Below, piece after piece: positions 13,680 to 22,538 of a stretch of DNA of 64,000 bases; position 1 is the stretch's first letter; every line of letters begins with the position of its first letter. Both the position numbers and the translations under genes were made by a program. A model generated the notes under the pieces. That model was given only the letters and a program-made list of their open reading frames with translations, was not told the origin of the DNA and ran no database searches. The DNA is taken from contig NZ_RBIL01000001.1 of NCBI RefSeq assembly GCF_003633755.1, positions 1,349,426 to 1,413,425 on the forward strand, read 5' to 3'. This stretch comes from Solirubrobacter pauli. Its GTDB lineage: Bacteria; Actinomycetota; Thermoleophilia; Solirubrobacterales; Solirubrobacteraceae.

Positions 13680-15890
13680 GTGCGCCTCCCCACGCTCGTC
13701 GCTCTCCTCACGCTGCTCCTCGCCGCACCCGCCGCCGCGGCGGTGACCGACCTCACGGTCGACAACACCCGGCCGTCGGCCGCGGCCGGTGCGCGGACCG
13801 TGTACCGCGTCGGCTTCACGATCACCGCCGGCCTCGGCGGCGCCGACAGCGTCCGCGTGACGCTGCCCGGCGACCTCGGCACCGATGGCTGGCAGACCGG
13901 CACGCTCCGCGACGAGACCCGCGGCGTCGACGTCGGCGGCTGCGTGCGGCCGAACGCGGTCCTGATCTCGACCTGCACGTTCTTCAGCGGGCAGTCGGCC
14001 GCGGCCGGCGCGCGCCTGACGGCCACGCTGCGTGGCCTGACGAACCCGTCCACGGTCGGCGTGCGCGGGGTCGGCGTGAGCACGACGGCCGAGCCGGTCA
14101 CGACGTCCTCGGACCCGTTCGCGATCGTCGCCGGTGGCCCGGTGTCCGAGCCGACGCTGGCGATCGGCTCCCCGTCGGCGGCGGCGGGCGCGGTGACCCG
14201 CTACGTGATCGGCTTCACGGTCACCGGTGGCCTGTCGGCCGAGGCCAACAGCCGGATCGCGGTCACGCTCCCACCGGGAACGGGCGCGGACGGCTGGCAG
14301 ACCGGGACGATCCGCGACGTCACGCGCGGGGTCGACGTCGGCTCGTGCGCCCGGCCCGCCGGCGGCGTGTCCGACTGCGGGTTCTACTCGAGCGGATACG
14401 TCGACGCCGGCGACGAGCTGCAGCTCACGCTGCGCGGGCTGACCAACGGCGACGTCGGGGCGAAGACCGTGTCCGTGTCGACCACGACCGACCTGCCCGC
14501 CGTGTCTTCCATCGCCGCGAGCGTCGTCACGGGCGGGAGCGTGTCGACGCCGACGGTGACGATCGCCGACCCGTCCCCGGCCGCGGGCGCGCTCACCCGG
14601 CACGTGATCCGGTTCAGCGTCTCCGGCACCGGCGGCCTCTCGGCCGACGCGGGCAGCCGGATCGCGGTCACCGTTCCCCCGGGCACCGGCACGAGCGGCT
14701 GGCAGGGCGGGACGATCCGCGACGTCACCCGCCGGCTCGACGTCGGCAGCTGCGCGGTGCCCGTCGACGGCGTCGCGCGGTGCGGGTTCTACTCGACCGG
14801 GTTCGTGAACCCCGGCGCCGAGCTCGAGCTGACGCTGCGCGGGCTCACGAACGGCCCCGCCGGAGCGCAAAGCGTGTCGGTCACCACCACGAGCGACCTC
14901 CCGGCCGTCGCCTCCACGCCCTTCGTCGTGCTCGGCGGGGGCGCGCTGACCGGCGTCGCGCTGCGGTTCGGCTCGCCCGCGGAGGTCGGGCTCGTCACCT
15001 CGGCCACCGGCGGGCTGTCCGCCGACGCGGGCAGCCGGATCCGGCTGACGTTCCCCGCCGGCACCGCGTTCTCCGGCACGACCAACGGCATCGTCCGCGA
15101 CCTCACGCGCGGGGTCGACGTCGGCTCGTGCGGGTCGCCGGCGGGCGTGAACGTCACCTGCGGCCTGTACTCGACCGCGTTCGTGAACCCGGGCGACGTG
15201 CTGCGGATCAGCTTCCCGGGGATCACCGCGCCGGCGCTGCTCGCGCCCATGACCGCGAGCACCACGTCCGACGTGCCGGAGGTCGCCTCGGGCGCCCCGG
15301 TCGTCGAGCCGACGCCCACCCCCACACCCACCCCGACGCCCACGCCGTCGCCGAGCCCGGAGCCGACGGCGGTCCCCACGGTGATCGCCACCCCGACGCC
15401 GACCCCCAACGCGCGCCCCGCGGAGGGCACCGTCAAGGTCAAGGTCCCCGGCTCCAGCCGCTACGTGGAACTGGACCCGGCGGCGGGCGTCCCGCTCGGG
15501 TCGACCGTGGACGCCAAGCAGGGCACGGTCGTCATCCGCGACGGCAGCGGCGGCGAGGCCGAGTTCTCCGACGGGATCTTCACGCTCAGCCGTGTCGGCC
15601 GTGTCACGGTGCTCACGCTCACCGAGCCGCTCGCACCGTGCAAGCGCGCGTCGGCGGCGAAGAAGAAGGCCAGATCGCGCAAGCTGTGGGGGAACGGCAA
15701 GGGCGCGTTCCGCACGGCCGGCAAGTACAGCGCCGCCACGGTGCGCGGCACGCGCTGGCTCGTGCAGGACTCCTGCGCCGGCACGCTGACGAAGGTCACC
15801 CAGGGCGCCGTCACGGTGCGTGACGCCGTCAAGAAGAAGACCGTCGTCGTGCGCGCCGGCAAGCGGTACCGCGCTACGCCGAAGCGCTGA
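13680..15890 (+). CDS. Secreted beta-repeat protein with FecR-like C-terminus
   Basis: 736 residues. The signal peptide is MRLPTLVALLTLLLAAPAAAA. Four diverged repeats of about 135 residues follow, each with a marker such as GWQTGTIRDVTRGVDVGSC and two cysteines likely to form a disulfide; the fourth has lost part of its first half. A Thr-Pro spacer (about residues 542-575) leads to a C-terminal domain with TVDAKQGTVVIRD and GKYSAATVRGTRWLVQD, which resembles FecR-type iron-dicitrate sensor folds. It is probably a surface or cell-wall protein. GTG start. Its stop overlaps the convergent ABC permease gene by 17 bases. No enzyme motif seen. Confidence 0.85.
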   Translation: MRLPTLVALLTLLLAAPAAAAVTDLTVDNTRPSAAAGARTVYRVGFTITAGLGGADSVRVTLPGDLGTDGWQTGTLRDETRGVDVGGCVRPNAVLISTCTFFSGQSAAAGARLTATLRGLTNPSTVGVRGVGVSTTAEPVTTSSDPFAIVAGGPVSEPTLAIGSPSAAAGAVTRYVIGFTVTGGLSAEANSRIAVTLPPGTGADGWQTGTIRDVTRGVDVGSCARPAGGVSDCGFYSSGYVDAGDELQLTLRGLTNGDVGAKTVSVSTTTDLPAVSSIAASVVTGGSVSTPTVTIADPSPAAGALTRHVIRFSVSGTGGLSADAGSRIAVTVPPGTGTSGWQGGTIRDVTRRLDVGSCAVPVDGVARCGFYSTGFVNPGAELELTLRGLTNGPAGAQSVSVTTTSDLPAVASTPFVVLGGGALTGVALRFGSPAEVGLVTSATGGLSADAGSRIRLTFPAGTAFSGTTNGIVRDLTRGVDVGSCGSPAGVNVTCGLYSTAFVNPGDVLRISFPGITAPALLAPMTASTTSDVPEVASGAPVVEPTPTPTPTPTPTPSPSPEPTAVPTVIATPTPTPNARPAEGTVKVKVPGSSRYVELDPAAGVPLGSTVDAKQGTVVIRDGSGGEAEFSDGIFTLSRVGRVTVLTLTEPLAPCKRASAAKKKARSRKLWGNGKGAFRTAGKYSAATVRGTRWLVQDSCAGTLTKVTQGAVTVRDAVKKKTVVVRAGKRYRATPKR

Positions 15891-17742: not shown

Positions 17743-18702
17743 GTGAGCGAGACCACGTCCAGCCGGCTCCTGACGTTGCTGTCGTTGCTGCAGGGCCGTC
17801 GCGACTGGCCGGGCATGGAGCTGGCCGACCGCCTGGAGGTGTCCCCGCGCACGATCCGCCGCGACGTCGAGCGGCTCCGGACGCTCGGCTACCCCGTCGA
17901 GTCGATGACCGGCCCGGCCGGCGGCTACCAGCTCCGCGCGGGCACGGCGATGCCGCCGCTCCTGCTCGACGACGACGAGGCGATCGCGATCGCCGTGTCC
18001 CTGCGCACCGCCGCCGGCAGCTCGGTCATGGGCATCGAGGAGACCGCCGTCCGCGCGCTCGTCAAGCTCGAGCAGGTCCTCCCCACGCACCTGCGCCGGC
18101 GCGTGCAAGCGCTCCAGCGCGCGACCCAGACGCTCCAGGTCTACGCGGGCGGCCCGACCGTGGACCCGCAATGCCTGACGGCGCTCGCCGCGGCGGTCCG
18201 CGACACCGAGCGCGTGCGCTTCAGCTACACCGCGCGCGACCAGGCGCCGAGCAAGCGCGAGGCCGAACCCCACTCGCTCGTGAACGCGGGCCGCCGCTGG
18301 TACCTCGTGGCCTGGGACTGCGGGCGCTCGGACTGGCGCACGTTCCGCGTGGACCGGATCGAGAAGGTCCAGCCGATCGGCACCCGCTTCCACCCGCGCA
18401 CGCTCCCCGCCCCGGACGCGGCCAGCTACGTCCAGCAGAGCCTGCGCAACTACCCGTCGCGCTACGAGGCGCGCGTGACCGTGCACGCGTCCGCCGAGAC
18501 GCTGCAGGGCCGCCGCTGGCTCGGCGACATCACGCCGATCGACGACACCCGCTGCGAGCTCCGCACCAACGACGACCACCTCGACTGGCTCGCGATGCGG
18601 ATCGCGATGATCCCGGAGCCGTACGAGGTCCACGGGCCGCCGGAGCTGATCGAGCGGATGCGGGCGATCGCCGAGGGGATCACGCGGAGCACCGAGCGTT
18701 GA
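17743..18702 (+). CDS. HTH and WYL-domain transcriptional regulator
   Basis: About 319 residues from GTG 17743, chosen over a frame opening at 17701 because that extension would code through the perfect operator. The N-terminal winged helix-turn-helix reads LADRLEVSPRTIRRDVERL, and the WYL domain is about residues 130-210 (EPHSLVNAGRRWYLVAWD then WRTFRVDRIE). A C-terminal WCX-like region follows. WYL proteins sense ligands such as nucleotides or nucleic acid. The divergent exporter and the shared operator suggest control of drug or metabolite efflux plus autoregulation. The 3' end overlaps mcrC by 23 bases on the opposite strand. Confidence 0.92.
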   Translation: MSETTSSRLLTLLSLLQGRRDWPGMELADRLEVSPRTIRRDVERLRTLGYPVESMTGPAGGYQLRAGTAMPPLLLDDDEAIAIAVSLRTAAGSSVMGIEETAVRALVKLEQVLPTHLRRRVQALQRATQTLQVYAGGPTVDPQCLTALAAAVRDTERVRFSYTARDQAPSKREAEPHSLVNAGRRWYLVAWDCGRSDWRTFRVDRIEKVQPIGTRFHPRTLPAPDAASYVQQSLRNYPSRYEARVTVHASAETLQGRRWLGDITPIDDTRCELRTNDDHLDWLAMRIAMIPEPYEVHGPPELIERMRAIAEGITRSTER

Positions 18703-19948
18703 GCACGACCTCCCGCAGCGCGTCGACCAGCGGGCGCGCCTCGGTCTCGACCTCCTCCAGCACCTTCACCACCGGGACGCCGATCGCGGTAACGCTCGCC
18801 CGCAACGTGCGATCGCTGTGGCGGACGACGAGTGGCGTGCGCTCCAGCGCGGCACCCTCGGCGGGGTAGATGATCAGCGCGTGCGGCTGCTCCTTGGCGC
18901 CCAGCCCCATCGCGTACAGGAAGGTCTGCGCGACATCGTCGCGGCTGAGCCCTTTCGCCGAATAGCGCTTGTACTTGGCGTCGATCGGGATGGCCACCGC
19001 AGGCGCGCCGACCCGCGCGACTGCGTCCGGGATGAGCTTCAGGTAGGCGCGGCCGTCCGCGCGGCGTACGACGCTGCCCGTCTGCCTCTGGAAGTCCACG
19101 GTGCCCAGGGCCTCGCCGAGCAGCCGCTCGACGAACGTCTCGAAGACGCGGTTCATGTCGAGCAGGAACGCGAAGCTGCGCGTCGCGCCGCCCCGGTAGA
19201 GGTCGTCCAGGCCTTCGCTGCCCTCCAGCACCAGCCACGCCAGCTCGTGCGCCGCCGCGTATCGCTGGTTGAGACGGTCGTAGTGAACCTTGCGCTTCGG
19301 CAGCGCGACGGCGGACGCGTCACACACGTCCGAGAGGAGCAGCCGCAGGCGCCTGGCTCGCCGCCGCACGCCGGCGTCCCGGACCCGCTCCGCACACCGC
19401 TGCGCGGCGGCGAGGAGAAGCTGGTTGTCGAAGATGTCGGCCGACCGCTCGTCGAAGCGGCATTCCAGCCGGTCGACGCGACCGTGCTGCCGGCGTAGCT
19501 GGCGCTCGAAGAGCAGCCGTCCCCGCAGCGCCCCGAGCGTGTCCTCGCGCTCGACGTAGGCCGTGCGCACCCCCGCCCGCGTGATCCGCTCGGCGGCGCG
19601 CACCAGCAGCAGCGCCACGAGATCCAGCAGGTTCGCGCCCTCGAGCTTGAGATCGTGCTCGGCGTCGAGCGCCTTGAGGGCGTTGAGCCCGCTGGCCCAG
19701 TCGACCATCCGCACGACGCCGAGGTGCTCGCCGGCGAGCTTCGGAACGACATGCAGCCGGACGCCGCTGAGCTGGACGACGCCGACCCACGAGCGCGCGG
19801 TCACGCGCAGACCGCTGACGAGCTCATCGACGATCAGCCGCCGCGAGCTGGTCAACCGCTCGCACAGCCGGCGGTCATCATCGTCGAGCGCGACGCCGGG
19901 CAGCACACGCGTGTGCCACTCGGGGATCTCGACCGCCGCGTCGGTCAT
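18680..19948 (-). CDS. mcrC: McrC-type restriction endonuclease subunit
   Basis: 422 residues. The N-terminal half carries McrC features (VGVVQLSGVRLHVVPKL, the LKALDAEHDL region); the C-terminal half holds a PD-(D/E)xK nuclease core with PD at 307-308, DAKYK at 323-327 and a trailing QTFLYAMGL motif. In McrBC systems this subunit cuts DNA after the McrB motor translocates from a modified site. Its ATG overlaps the mcrB stop (ATGA), so the pair is co-translated. The catalytic residues look intact. Confidence 0.9.
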   Translation of the reverse strand: MTDAAVEIPEWHTRVLPGVALDDDDRRLCERLTSSRRLIVDELVSGLRVTARSWVGVVQLSGVRLHVVPKLAGEHLGVVRMVDWASGLNALKALDAEHDLKLEGANLLDLVALLLVRAAERITRAGVRTAYVEREDTLGALRGRLLFERQLRRQHGRVDRLECRFDERSADIFDNQLLLAAAQRCAERVRDAGVRRRARRLRLLLSDVCDASAVALPKRKVHYDRLNQRYAAAHELAWLVLEGSEGLDDLYRGGATRSFAFLLDMNRVFETFVERLLGEALGTVDFQRQTGSVVRRADGRAYLKLIPDAVARVGAPAVAIPIDAKYKRYSAKGLSRDDVAQTFLYAMGLGAKEQPHALIIYPAEGAALERTPLVVRHSDRTLRASVTAIGVPVVKVLEEVETEARPLVDALREVVLNARCSA

Positions 19949-22497
19949 GAGGGCTCGTCGGACTCCGCCGCGCTCGCGGAGAAGCGTCCGGCGAGCGCTT
20001 GCACGAGGGCGTCGGGGTCTTCGAGGACGTCTTCCTTGAAGCCCTGGGCGTCGACGTCCACGAGCTCGGGTCCGAGGACCTGCTGGAGCTGCCCGTATTC
20101 CTCGTAGCAGTACTCCTGCAGCAGCGGCAGGATCTCCAGGCGGAAGATCCGGGCGAAGTCGGCCGCCTCCTCCACCGGCTGGCCGCCGGGCATCAGGTAC
20201 GCATGGCCGATCTGCTTCTCGCGACCAGCGACGCGTGCCACCTCCCGGTTGAGCCCCGCGAGGAAGTCCTCGAGCTTGAGCGTGCCTACCGCCTGCTCGA
20301 GTTGGTCCGGGCGCGGCATCAGCTCGATGAACGCGAACCGCCGCCGGAGCGCGACGTCCATGAGCGTGATCGATCGATCCGCGGTGTTCATCGTTCCGAG
20401 CAGGTACACGTTCGGCGGCACCACGAAGCGCTCCTTGCTCTGCGGCAGCGTGACCTGCAGGCCGCGCTTGTCCACCTCGAGCAACGTGATCAGCTCGCCC
20501 AGGACCTTGGCGACGTTCGCGCGGTTGATCTCGTCGATGACGAGCAGGTACGGGCGTCCGGGGTCGGCCAACGCCGCGAGGCAGACGCGCTTGAAGACGC
20601 CGTCCTCCAGCTGCAGGGCGAGCTCGCCGCTCGCGTCGGGAACCGGCCGAAAGCCCTCGACGAAGTCCTCGTAGCCGTAGGACGGATGGAAGGTCGTGAA
20701 GGTCAGCTGCCCGATCTGGTCGCCCTCCTCCAGGTACTCGATCGTGGAGGCGTCGGCCTGTCCGACCAGCGTCGACAGCCGTTGGGTCTCCGCGCCCGAG
20801 AGCGCGAACAGCGTGCCCTGAAATCCGTTGAACACCGCTTCGGACCTGGTAAGGAGCTCATCGCTGACGATGTCGTCGTAGGTCGGTCCGTTCTCGATCG
20901 GGTGCAGCGGCTCGAGGTCGATCGTCGGTGCATCCTTGCCCTCCGCGACGCCGAACGCCCGGCTGACACGCGCCAGGGCGACCAGCCGCTTGGTCGGGCT
21001 CGACTCGTACCCGAAGACGAGGTCGCCGACTTGCACCTTGGGGTAGTTGCGCTTGAGTCGGCGGTAGCCGAAGTCGATCTTCCCGTCCTTGAAGAGGTCG
21101 CTCCAGCTCCACTGCTTCGGGTTGGCCACGATCAGCCACGCGGTTTCGGCCAAGCCCGAGCCTGCGAGCTGGCGCTCGGCCGCGACGAGGGCTTCGCTGT
21201 CGGCGAAGGCGGCTTCCGGCTTGGCGTGGCCCGCCCGCTCTCGCAGCCACCAGGCCGCGAAGCGGCGGGCGTGGAACGTCTTCCCCGTCCCCGGTGGGCC
21301 GTACAGCACGACCTGGCCCTTGGCCTCGAGCGCGGACGCGAGCCACGTGTACAGCGGGTCGACTTCGACGGTGGGCTTGGGCCCGACGTCCGACGCCTCG
21401 ATGAGCGCCCGTTGCGCGGCCGTCACCTTGTCGATCGTGTTCAGCCACCCGTTCTGCGGCGGGATGTCCCGCGCGTAGCCGGTGTCCCACTCGACGTGCA
21501 CGACGTGGCGGTAGAACTCCCGCTGCGGCTGGTACTCGTACAGCGGCTCGACCACGGTGCCGACGGCGAGGATCTTGGACTTGCCGCGGTTGGCGACGAT
21601 CCGGTCCCCCGCCCGCAGCTCGGTCAGGCGCCAGAGCGCGTTCGCCTTGCGCGCCCGGACGTGGGCCGGATCGGCGTACGCCTCGTCGTAGGCGGCGCGG
21701 AACTCGGCCTTGCTGCCGAAGTCCCGCAGGTCGCCGATCGCCTCCCACCCGACCGCCATGATGTTCGCCGCGAGGAACGCGTCCCAGTGCATCCCCTGGC
21801 GCCCAGGCGAGATCTTGAGCCAGGTCGGCGCGGACACGGGCGAGAAGAAGCGGTAGAGGAAGCGCTCGAACTCGTTCGTCCTGAAGGTGCTGCCGCCAGG
21901 GCTGATGCGCCGCAGCTCCTCCAGCAGCGCGAGGTTGAGCTCGATCGCGCTCAGCGACTGGTTCGAGGCCTCCTCCCGGTCCAGCAGGCCGAGGAAGTGC
22001 CGTAGGTGGGCGCTGGACGCGATCGGCAGAACACGGTCCGGGAAGTACGTGTGCAGCGTCTTGACCAGGAGCGCGGGCCCGGTGCGCAGCGCGTCGAGGT
22101 CGGCGAGACGTGGCCAGCTGTTCTCAGCGGCGCTGTCCAGCGCGCTGACGAAGTCCTGCCGTACGCGCTCCCACGCGGCGTCCACTGAGTCGAAGGCGGC
22201 TTCGTCGAAGTGCCAGCCGTCTCCAGACTTGCGCTTGTAGATCAGCAGCTTGCTGGCGTTGCCGCCCCGGATCGACCCCAGGTGCGCCGCCGCGAACTCG
22301 AGCCGGTAGCAGTACGTGCCGGTTGAGTCGTCTTGGCCGATGGCGTACTCGGCCAGCGTCATCGCCGGCCAGGCCTCGCGCGGAAACCGCGCGAGCAGAT
22401 CAGCACGCTCCTCCTCGCCCAGATCGAGATGTGCTCGATCGAGCTCCGGGTCGTAGGCGGCCAGCGCGCGTACGACCCGGTCCCGTGTCTCACTCAT
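19945..22497 (-). CDS. mcrB: McrB-type AAA motor with EVE insert and second PUA-like domain
   Basis: 850 residues. Residues 1-215 are an unassigned alpha/beta domain. Residues 225-320 look like a PUA-superfamily fold (WLKISPGRQGMHWDAFLA to DRIVANRGKSKILAVGTV). The AAA domain has Walker A YGPPGTGKT (399-407), Walker B LLVIDEINRAN (651-661) and the McrB signature GTMNTADRS (701-709). Between Walker A and Walker B, residues 452-580 form an EVE-like domain (AWLIVANPKQWSW to LVALARVSRAF). EVE/PUA folds read modified bases, so this motor may carry two readers. With McrC it should restrict modified foreign DNA. It lies just after sufD on the same strand. Confidence 0.9.
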   Translation of the reverse strand: MSETRDRVVRALAAYDPELDRAHLDLGEEERADLLARFPREAWPAMTLAEYAIGQDDSTGTYCYRLEFAAAHLGSIRGGNASKLLIYKRKSGDGWHFDEAAFDSVDAAWERVRQDFVSALDSAAENSWPRLADLDALRTGPALLVKTLHTYFPDRVLPIASSAHLRHFLGLLDREEASNQSLSAIELNLALLEELRRISPGGSTFRTNEFERFLYRFFSPVSAPTWLKISPGRQGMHWDAFLAANIMAVGWEAIGDLRDFGSKAEFRAAYDEAYADPAHVRARKANALWRLTELRAGDRIVANRGKSKILAVGTVVEPLYEYQPQREFYRHVVHVEWDTGYARDIPPQNGWLNTIDKVTAAQRALIEASDVGPKPTVEVDPLYTWLASALEAKGQVVLYGPPGTGKTFHARRFAAWWLRERAGHAKPEAAFADSEALVAAERQLAGSGLAETAWLIVANPKQWSWSDLFKDGKIDFGYRRLKRNYPKVQVGDLVFGYESSPTKRLVALARVSRAFGVAEGKDAPTIDLEPLHPIENGPTYDDIVSDELLTRSEAVFNGFQGTLFALSGAETQRLSTLVGQADASTIEYLEEGDQIGQLTFTTFHPSYGYEDFVEGFRPVPDASGELALQLEDGVFKRVCLAALADPGRPYLLVIDEINRANVAKVLGELITLLEVDKRGLQVTLPQSKERFVVPPNVYLLGTMNTADRSITLMDVALRRRFAFIELMPRPDQLEQAVGTLKLEDFLAGLNREVARVAGREKQIGHAYLMPGGQPVEEAADFARIFRLEILPLLQEYCYEEYGQLQQVLGPELVDVDAQGFKEDVLEDPDALVQALAGRFSASAAESDEPS

Positions 22498-22499
22498 GC

Positions 22500-22516
22500 C
22501 GCCACATTACGTGGCG
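22500..22516. promoter_or_regulatory. Dyad in the sufD-mcrB gap
   Basis: Perfect inverted repeat CGCCAC-ATTAC-GTGGCG, two bases upstream of the mcrB ATG and inside the 41-base gap after sufD. It could be an operator, a weak terminator, or a hairpin that masks the mcrB ribosome site. Confidence 0.4.
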
Positions 22517-22538
22517 ACGCCTGCGTACTACGCCAGTC

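What the first reader, a model, noticed from the sequence alone, without database searches (positions are those of the whole stretch)
19945..22497. McrB motor with an EVE domain inserted in its AAA core and a second PUA-like reader
Walker A lies at 399-407, Walker B at 651; between them residues 452-580 form an EVE-like domain, and 225-320 looks like another PUA-superfamily fold. EVE-McrB fusions are known, but two readers, one inside the motor, could give dual recognition of modified bases or couple reading directly to ATP hydrolysis.
Basis: partly seen in the sequence, partly recalled or inferred. Interest (0 to 1): 0.6.

Follow-up and report, generated by a model that had tools for sequence, protein, structure and literature searches.

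The report
Restriction motor with a built-in DNA reader
This bacterial two-gene defence cassette codes for a DNA-cutting machine whose motor carries one likely modified-base reader in front of it and a second one spliced into its core, a rare form of a known system in which readers seem to be swapped in and out of fixed slots.

Summary
Window 19945-22497, MINUS strand, codes an 850-residue McrB that overlaps mcrC (18680-19948) by 4 bp. Between Walker A (400-407) and Walker B (651-659) lies a real EVE domain (Pfam E 2e-9; fold Z 16.5 to a solved EVE protein). The motor still superposes on Thermococcus McrB (287 residues, 2.1 A) with it looped out. Missed: residues 1-220 are a third module shared with defence protein PD-T4-1; the nucleotide is probably GTP.

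It is rare but not unique. Five distinct McrBs found here carry EVE in this slot. Four tested motors do not form one clade (AU p 1e-13), yet four of five EVE inserts group together, weakly. Other McrBs fill the slot with an unnamed domain or nothing. Relatives of the second reader sit in a second slot in three other McrBs. Readers thus look like exchangeable modules.

Insertions, likely of specificity domains, in McrB GTPases are in print in general terms (eLife 2024). Verdict: new variant of type IV McrBC; base specificity and coupling untested.

The parts
19945..22497 (-). mcrB-like gene, 850 aa (P0001)
   Evidence: solved Thermococcus McrB matched at E 1e-52
21838..22497 (-). N-terminal module, residues 1-220, mostly helical; shared with PADLOC PD-T4-1 profile
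   Evidence: PADLOC PDLC04021 E 1.2e-16, residues 7-219 to profile 9-215/383; modelled with ten-residue blocks of pLDDT 72-98; fold not identified
   Evidence: fold Z 10.3 to 1wmm, 10.2 to VcaM4I; PADLOC PDC-S02 E 2.3e-15, residues 226-345
21277..21300 (-). Walker A GPPGTGKT, residues 400-407
20725..21156 (-). second reader: EVE domain inserted between helix 1 and strand 2 of the AAA+ core, residues 448-591
   Evidence: Pfam EVE E 2.2e-9; fold Z 16.5 to 1zce; EVE at the same point in L054, L055, L139, L148
19978..20712 (-). rest of the McrB AAA+ core, residues 596-840 (FHPSYGYEDF 603-612, DEINR 655-659, NTAD 704-707, RRRF 718-721)
20521..20547 (-). Walker B, residues 651-659
18680..19948 (-). 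mcrC, 422 aa; PF10117; PD...DAK nuclease motif at residues 307-325; overlaps mcrB by 4 bp
   Evidence: (E 1.8e-46)
18682..22530 (.). span absent from two congeneric genomes, where the flanks are 5 bases apart (empty site)
   Evidence: L290 and L291 align to window 22531 on one side and 18681 on the other

Best explanation
[quoted passage not shown] Six McrB subunits would form a GTP-driven ring that recruits and is stimulated by the McrC nuclease. Target choice is made by modules hung on the ring: a helical N-terminal module (1-220), a PUA-like reader in front of the motor (222-372), and an EVE reader spliced into the motor between helix 1 and strand 2 (448-591). The most likely working is that the two PUA-superfamily domains each flip or grip a modified base in phage DNA, so that stable loading needs two contacts (avidity or two marks); GTP-driven McrB then activates McrC, which cuts. 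Shown here: gene pair, motor motifs, folds of both readers (predicted models), insertion point, conservation of the insert, presence/absence of the cassette among congeners. Inferred from families: hexamer, GTP, McrC activation. Inferred only: base binding by either reader, which base, and joint action.
For: McrB/McrC pair with intact Walker A, Walker B, NxxD and PD-DxK motifs. AAA+ core Z 28.6 to TgMcrB. EVE fold Z 13-16.5 to EVE proteins, including the THYN1-DNA and VcaM4I entries. PUA-like fold of 222-372. The insert is about as conserved as the modules in front of the motor, between the window and L054 (EVE 43%, PUA 42%, N-terminal module 35%) and L055 (41%, 36%, 40%). McrC-like gene downstream (blastp E<=1e-3) in 75 of 75 relatives that had downstream sequence, of 76 parsed loci. 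The cassette is absent, with flanks nearly adjoining, in two of six congeneric genomes. VcaM4I's EVE flips 5mC/5hmC (PMC7897488, abstract and passages) and TgMcrB's YTH domain targets 6mA (PMC7680126, passages).
Against: No binding or cleavage data. The base pocket was not mapped residue by residue on VcaM4I. The PUA-like domain has no Pfam match, weak Foldseek scores and middling Z (about 10), so its ligand class is open. The inserted EVE is modelled with lower confidence (ten-residue blocks 59-90, residues 517-519 under 50), and domain orientation is uncertain (pTM 0.54). 72 of 76 parsed relatives have neither EVE nor another domain of that size in the slot, so it is not needed for the core function. 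L148's inserted EVE is only 21% identical.
Confidence: 0.62

Rival explanations
1. Allosteric gate: the inserted EVE is chiefly a switch. Binding a base pulls on helix 1/strand 2, whose far end carries the FHxSYxYE segment and helix-2 hairpin that contacts the McrC finger, so that base reading directly licenses GTP hydrolysis or McrC activation.
For: Insertion lies directly between the Walker A helix and strand 2; in TgMcrB aromatic residues of the helix-2 inserts surround the McrC finger tip (PMC7680126, passages).
Against: The core superposes on TgMcrB with the insert looped out (2.1 A); close relatives presumably work with no insert; [quoted passage not shown] coli McrBC in vitro.
Confidence: 0.2
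2. The insert or the second domain is a protein-contact or structural module and does not read bases, as proposed for an EVE domain of PcdA, which serves in FtsZ-linked cell division.
For: In PcdA a surface of EVE-1 is predicted, and tested by mutation, to contact FtsZ (PMC10602043, passages); the 222-372 domain has no Pfam EVE or YTH match.
Against: Genes sit with an McrC whose nuclease motif is intact; motor motifs intact, unlike PcdA; ANPKQWSW, GDL and QGT are kept in all three aligned inserts (window, L054, L055) and partly shared with 2gbs.
Confidence: 0.12
3. The system reads sequence or structure rather than modified bases (like LlaJI with a B3 domain), or targets RNA.
For: Other McrB relatives have such specificities (PMC7680126 and PMC11090510, passages); function of the N-terminal module is unknown.
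Against: NxxD motif, not the NxD of the branch that holds CoCoNuTs; no methyltransferase among the nine neighbouring proteins scanned.
Confidence: 0.1

Closest known systems
EVE-McrB fusions (Bell et al. 2020, PMC7641849)
   Same: EVE domain incorporated into an McrB motor protein
   Different: the section read speaks of fusions with additional domains often present; here EVE is inside the AAA+ core and a second PUA-like domain stands in front
McrB GTPases with insertions (Bell et al. 2024, PMC11090510, section 6)
   Same: insertions, likely specificity domains, in McrB GTPase domains
   Different: the passages and section I saw name neither the site nor the inserted reader families; supplements not readable here
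Thermococcus gammatolerans McrBC
   Same: AAA+ core (Z 28.6) and a PUA-superfamily (YTH) reader in front of it (PMC7680126, passages)
   Different: one reader; no slot-1 insert (six chain residues between the two aligned blocks, against 177 in the window protein)
VcaM4I (EVE-HNH) and THYN1 EVE domains
   Same: fold of the insert (Z 13-14)
   Different: standalone or nuclease-fused, not in a motor; base specificity of the window's EVE unknown
PD-T4-1 (PADLOC)
   Same: profile positions 9-215 match residues 7-219
   Different: the rest of the 383-position profile is not matched; PD-T4-1 is listed with a PD(D/E)XK nuclease domain (PMC10952713, table 1 passage)
PcdA of Staphylococcus aureus
   Same: McrB-family AAA+ with two EVE domains
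   Different: both EVE domains N-terminal, degenerate motor, no McrC (PMC10602043, passages)

Membership tests
McrB (GTPase subunit of McrBC) | AAA+ core with Walker A, Walker B and NxxD signature | tested here: met
   GPPGTGKT 400-407, DEINR 655-659, NTAD 704-707; Z 28.6 to 6ut5
McrB (GTPase subunit of McrBC) | operon partner mcrC with PF10117 and PD-(D/E)xK motif | tested here: met
   E 1.8e-46; PD-DAK at 307-325
McrB (GTPase subunit of McrBC) | GTP rather than ATP use; hexamer; modification-dependent cleavage | not testable with these tools
   needs biochemistry
EVE (PF01878), residues 448-591 | Pfam score above gathering cut-off | tested here: met
   37.9 bits against 23
EVE (PF01878), residues 448-591 | EVE fold | tested here: met
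   predicted model, Z 16.5 to 1zce, 134 residues, 2.7 A; Z 14.7 to 2eve
EVE (PF01878), residues 448-591 | base-flipping pocket binding 5mC/5hmC | not testable with these tools
   pocket residues not mapped; binding not measured
EVE or YTH family, residues 222-372 | Pfam match above cut-off | tested here: not met
   no EVE or YTH match at E<=1 in this stretch of P0001 nor in the 37 members of A4, which are P0001's own stretch and 36 relatives (chance-level hits only, best E 0.002, each in one member); so it is called PUA-like only
PUA superfamily fold, residues 222-372 | structural match to PUA-superfamily domains over most of the domain | tested here: met
   Z 10.3 (1wmm, 111 residues, 2.5 A); the rows listed are EVE-type (PH1033, MJECL36, VcaM4I) or YTH domains; Foldseek alone weak, best E 0.039
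NxD branch of McrB (holds the CoCoNuTs) | NxD signature motif | tested here: not met
   motif is NTAD = NxxD
PD-T4-1 | match over the whole profile | tested here: not met
   match covers profile 9-215 of 383 only

The most novel reading that the evidence does not exclude
The McrB motor is a chassis with three interchangeable docking points for base readers: in front of strand 1, slot 1 between helix 1 and strand 2, and slot 2 between helix 2 and the Walker B strand. Readers of one family move between them. EVE is found in front or in slot 1, the second PUA-like family in front or in slot 2 (L204 has the same N-terminal module with the PUA-like reader moved into slot 2), and an unnamed third domain fills slot 1 elsewhere. 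By general AAA+ topology (recalled) all three points open on the same edge of the sheet, away from the nucleotide. The window protein loads two of them, so one subunit would read twice and a hexamer up to twelve times.
Probability: 0.45. Interest if true: 0.6.

Novelty: new variant of a known kind. Interest (0 to 1): 0.42.

Why it matters
McrBC is a common phage-defence system, yet how base recognition is passed to the motor is open. Natural proteins that differ by the presence or absence of a reader inside the motor (window and L054 with, L056 without, the other modules alike) are ready-made pairs for testing whether reading and hydrolysis are coupled. If readers plug into fixed slots, the target range of McrBC systems could be predicted from slot content.

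Tried and rejected
Considered and rejected: assembly or frame artefact (open 850-aa frame, co-linear 44%-identical relative L054). Pfam artefact for EVE (fold and conservation agree). EVE insert as a trait of one motor clade: window, L054, L055, L148 held together are rejected (AU p 1.3e-13), and window, L054, L148 only marginally (p 0.044); the groups were named with the trees in view, L139 was not in that test, L148 has a long branch, and on the trees the insert label is not significantly clustered or scattered (61 and 82 of 500 shuffles as low). One gain with repeated loss is not excluded.

I first took the non-EVE slot-1 domain (L128, L130, L035, L037) for a winged helix by eye. Pfam gives only one chance-level hit (E 0.11, L035) and none for the other three, and a profile search of solved structures gives nothing below E 0.17, so it is left unnamed.

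A profile of residues 1-378 found no solved relative (best E 0.37). Viral contigs and phage records gave only relatives of the motor half (query residues from 548 on; 3 loci, 22 records). In plasmids 297 records matched and none covered 80% of the protein; with the insert plus motor as query 2 of 124 records covered 80%, but Butyrivibrio (L034) has its EVE in front of the motor, and the Acinetobacter protein (L036) showed no such insert when read. Coordinates of the models were not available, so distances between readers and pore were not measured.

Prior print of an EVE inside the McrB core was looked for by searches and by finds in PMC7641849, PMC11090510, PMC10602043, PMC7680126; only the general statement of PMC11090510 was seen. 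Supplementary files could not be read, so prior description there, or outside the held library, is not excluded.

Survey limits: one search parsed 76 of 80 loci (L060, L131, L132, L133 gave no motif pair). One search kept 80 of 126 relatives. In one search only the best 30 of 64 places, and 30 of 42 places, became loci. One search parsed 37 of 76 loci (31 without all three motifs, 8 duplicates dropped); eight of the 37 are re-finds of proteins already seen (L198, L224, L242, L243, L250, L252, L255, L263), and the centre genomes were chosen because they carry McrB, so proportions are not frequencies.
Full report
WHAT IS THERE. The finding lies on the minus strand: window 19945-22497 codes an 850-residue protein, P0001. 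Its end overlaps by four bases the start of a 422-residue mcrC (18680-19948), which matches Pfam McrBC PF10117 at E 1.8e-46 and has a PD...DAK nuclease motif. P0001 matches solved McrB proteins of Thermococcus (E 1e-52) and E. coli (E 6e-42). It has Walker A at 400-407, DEINR at 655-659 and the McrB signature NTAD (NxxD) at 704-707.

THE INSERT. Pfam places an EVE domain between the Walker motifs (PF01878, E 2.2e-9, above its cut-off). AlphaFold2 with a 40-row alignment gave a model with mean pLDDT 86.2 and pTM 0.54. VIA-align 2 matches residues 450-591 to solved EVE domains (1zce Z 16.5, 2eve 14.7, THYN1 with DNA 14.2, VcaM4I 13.2), while the motor matches Thermococcus McrB at Z 28.6 over 287 residues and 2.1 A, skipping the insert. 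By the order of elements in the model (helix 406-421, two short helices, EVE, strand 598-602) the EVE sits between helix 1 and strand 2. Confidence inside the insert is lower (ten-residue blocks 59-90; 517-519 under 50), as only three rows of the alignment carry it.

THE SECOND READER. A model of residues 1-378 (pLDDT 90.8, pTM 0.83) was compared with solved structures. Residues 221-377 match PH1033 (Z 10.3), the EVE-HNH enzyme VcaM4I (10.2), MJECL36 (10.1) and many YTH domains (8.4-9.3). Foldseek alone is weak (best E 0.039, YTHDF2). No Pfam EVE or YTH match is found in this stretch of P0001 at E<=1 or in the 37 members of alignment A4, so it is PUA-like but not shown to be a member of EVE or YTH. 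PADLOC finds the same stretch at the front of PDC-S02 profiles (E 2.3e-15, profile 5-127 of 334).

A THIRD MODULE. Residues 7-219 match the first half of the PADLOC PD-T4-1 profile (9-215 of 383, E 1.2e-16). A profile of this module matched 74 times among 130 McrB relatives gathered here, 73 times in front of the motor (the 74th, L037, could not be placed by the motif parser). Its fold was not identified.

RELATIVES. A scan of genome contigs found 126 relatives, of which 80 were kept. Two are co-linear over almost the whole length with an EVE insert: L054 (Candidatus Fischerbacteria, 44%) and L055 (Virgisporangium ochraceum, 38%). L056 (Acidobacteria) has the same two front modules and no insert. 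Of 76 loci parsed, the Walker A to FHxSY distance is 187-205 in L055 and L054, 154-155 in L128 and L130, and 27-73 in the other 72. All 75 loci with downstream sequence have an McrC-like gene there (L110 ends too soon). Searches with a profile of the insert (A3) gave: 3 of 396 genomes of the window's phylum (the window; L137 with the EVE in front of the motor; L138, a short frame); 27 of 299 genomes of the phylum of L108's genome (two inserts, L139 and L148; seven EVE-in-front loci; L147, with EVE in a frame that holds no motor; 17 short frames); 63 of 299 genomes of the phylum of L128's genome, with no insert among the 30 loci read. All five inserts pass the Pfam EVE cut-off. Window, L054, L055 and L148 share all three accessory modules; L139 has the insert but neither front module.

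HOW IT EVOLVED. On a tree of the proteins without the insert columns, window, L054, L055 and L148 are rejected as one clade (AU p 1.3e-13; window, L054, L148 alone p 0.044; groups named with the tree in view). On a tree of EVE domains, four of five inserts group together (SH-aLRT 85) beside the EVEs that stand in front of other McrBs (87), apart from 44 of 46 EVEs in short frames; L148's insert falls elsewhere, beside a short frame. Support is modest and several branches are long. Either the insert is old and often lost, or an EVE lineage has been moved between motors; L148 suggests a separate insertion at the same point. Between window and L054 the EVE is 43% identical, against 42% for the PUA-like domain and 35% for the N-terminal module, so it appears to be kept as a working domain.

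SLOTS. The same point carries a different, unnamed domain of about 140 residues in L128, L130, L035 and L037 (no confident Pfam or PDB match). In a further survey 37 McrBs were parsed: slot 1 exceeded 90 residues in 5 of 37, slot 2 (FHxSY to Walker B) exceeded 100 in 11 of 37, and no protein had both. A profile of the window's second reader matched 81 times among the 130 proteins: 78 in front of the motor and three inside slot 2 (L230 E 2.6e-11, L228 5.9e-10, L204 7.0e-9). L204 also has the N-terminal module in front (E 5.9e-13), so there the PUA-like reader has, in effect, moved from the front into the motor. L262's slot-2 insert looks similar by eye but does not reach significance (E 0.1). 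So relatives of both readers occur both in front of and inside McrB motors. General AAA+ topology (recalled, strand order 5-1-4-3-2) puts slot 1, slot 2 and the N-terminal entry on the same edge of the sheet; this was not measured on the model.

THE CASSETTE. In two of six congeneric genomes (G001, G006) the suf and WYL-regulator genes adjoin. Their DNA aligns to window 22531 on one side and 18681 on the other, with five bases between. In three others the gap holds 0.5-2 kb of other DNA; in G002 the best matches of the two genes lie on different contigs. Five of these six have no match to P0001 at E<=0.001; G002 has two weak motor matches. So mcrBC is present in one of seven genomes of the genus searched, at a variable site, most simply a recent gain. 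The neighbours scanned (suf, Rieske, ABC transporter, WYL regulator and others, nine proteins) gave no nuclease or methyltransferase by Pfam.

MECHANISM. Best supported: a type IV McrBC in which GTP-driven McrB activates McrC when its readers hold modified DNA, with two PUA-superfamily readers per subunit. Base binding is inferred from VcaM4I (EVE flips 5mC/5hmC; PMC7897488, abstract and passages) and TgMcrB (YTH domain, 6mA; PMC7680126, passages). Whether the internal EVE gates hydrolysis or only adds grip is open; [quoted passage not shown] coli McrBC in vitro, which speaks for grip.

KNOWN AND NEW. [quoted passage not shown] that clause also covers McrC insertions, likely coiled coils). In the searches listed under Tried and rejected I saw no main text naming an EVE in this slot, or the exchange of reader families between front and slots; supplements were not readable. 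I therefore file it as a new variant of a known kind.

Noticed in passing
window 18682-22530; L290, L291, L292, L293, L294: The stretch between sufD and the WYL regulator is a variable site: empty in two congeneric genomes, 0.5-2 kb of unrelated DNA in three (an ORF that looks like an alpha/beta hydrolase, by eye, in L294).
   Followed up: partly
L110:4975-5250: A Planctomycetota McrB relative starts with a DpnI_C winged-helix domain (Pfam E 1.1e-15), a domain type known as a 6mA reader in DpnI.
   Followed up: partly
L205, L207, L208, L229, L233, L262, L265, L266 (slot 2): FHxSY-to-Walker B distances of 146-217 (42-64 where the slot is empty) whose inserts do not match the PUA-like profile at E<=0.01; possibly further reader families.
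   Followed up: no
   Followed up: no
window 13680-15890 (+): 736-residue ORF with repeated stretches and a TPTPTP-rich linker, no Pfam match at E<=0.001.
   Followed up: no
L139 (G845): McrB with the EVE insert but with neither front module of the window protein: the internal EVE can do without them.
   Followed up: partly
L204 (G1284): McrB with the window's N-terminal module in front and a relative of its PUA-like reader inside slot 2: a natural rearrangement of the same parts.
   Followed up: partly
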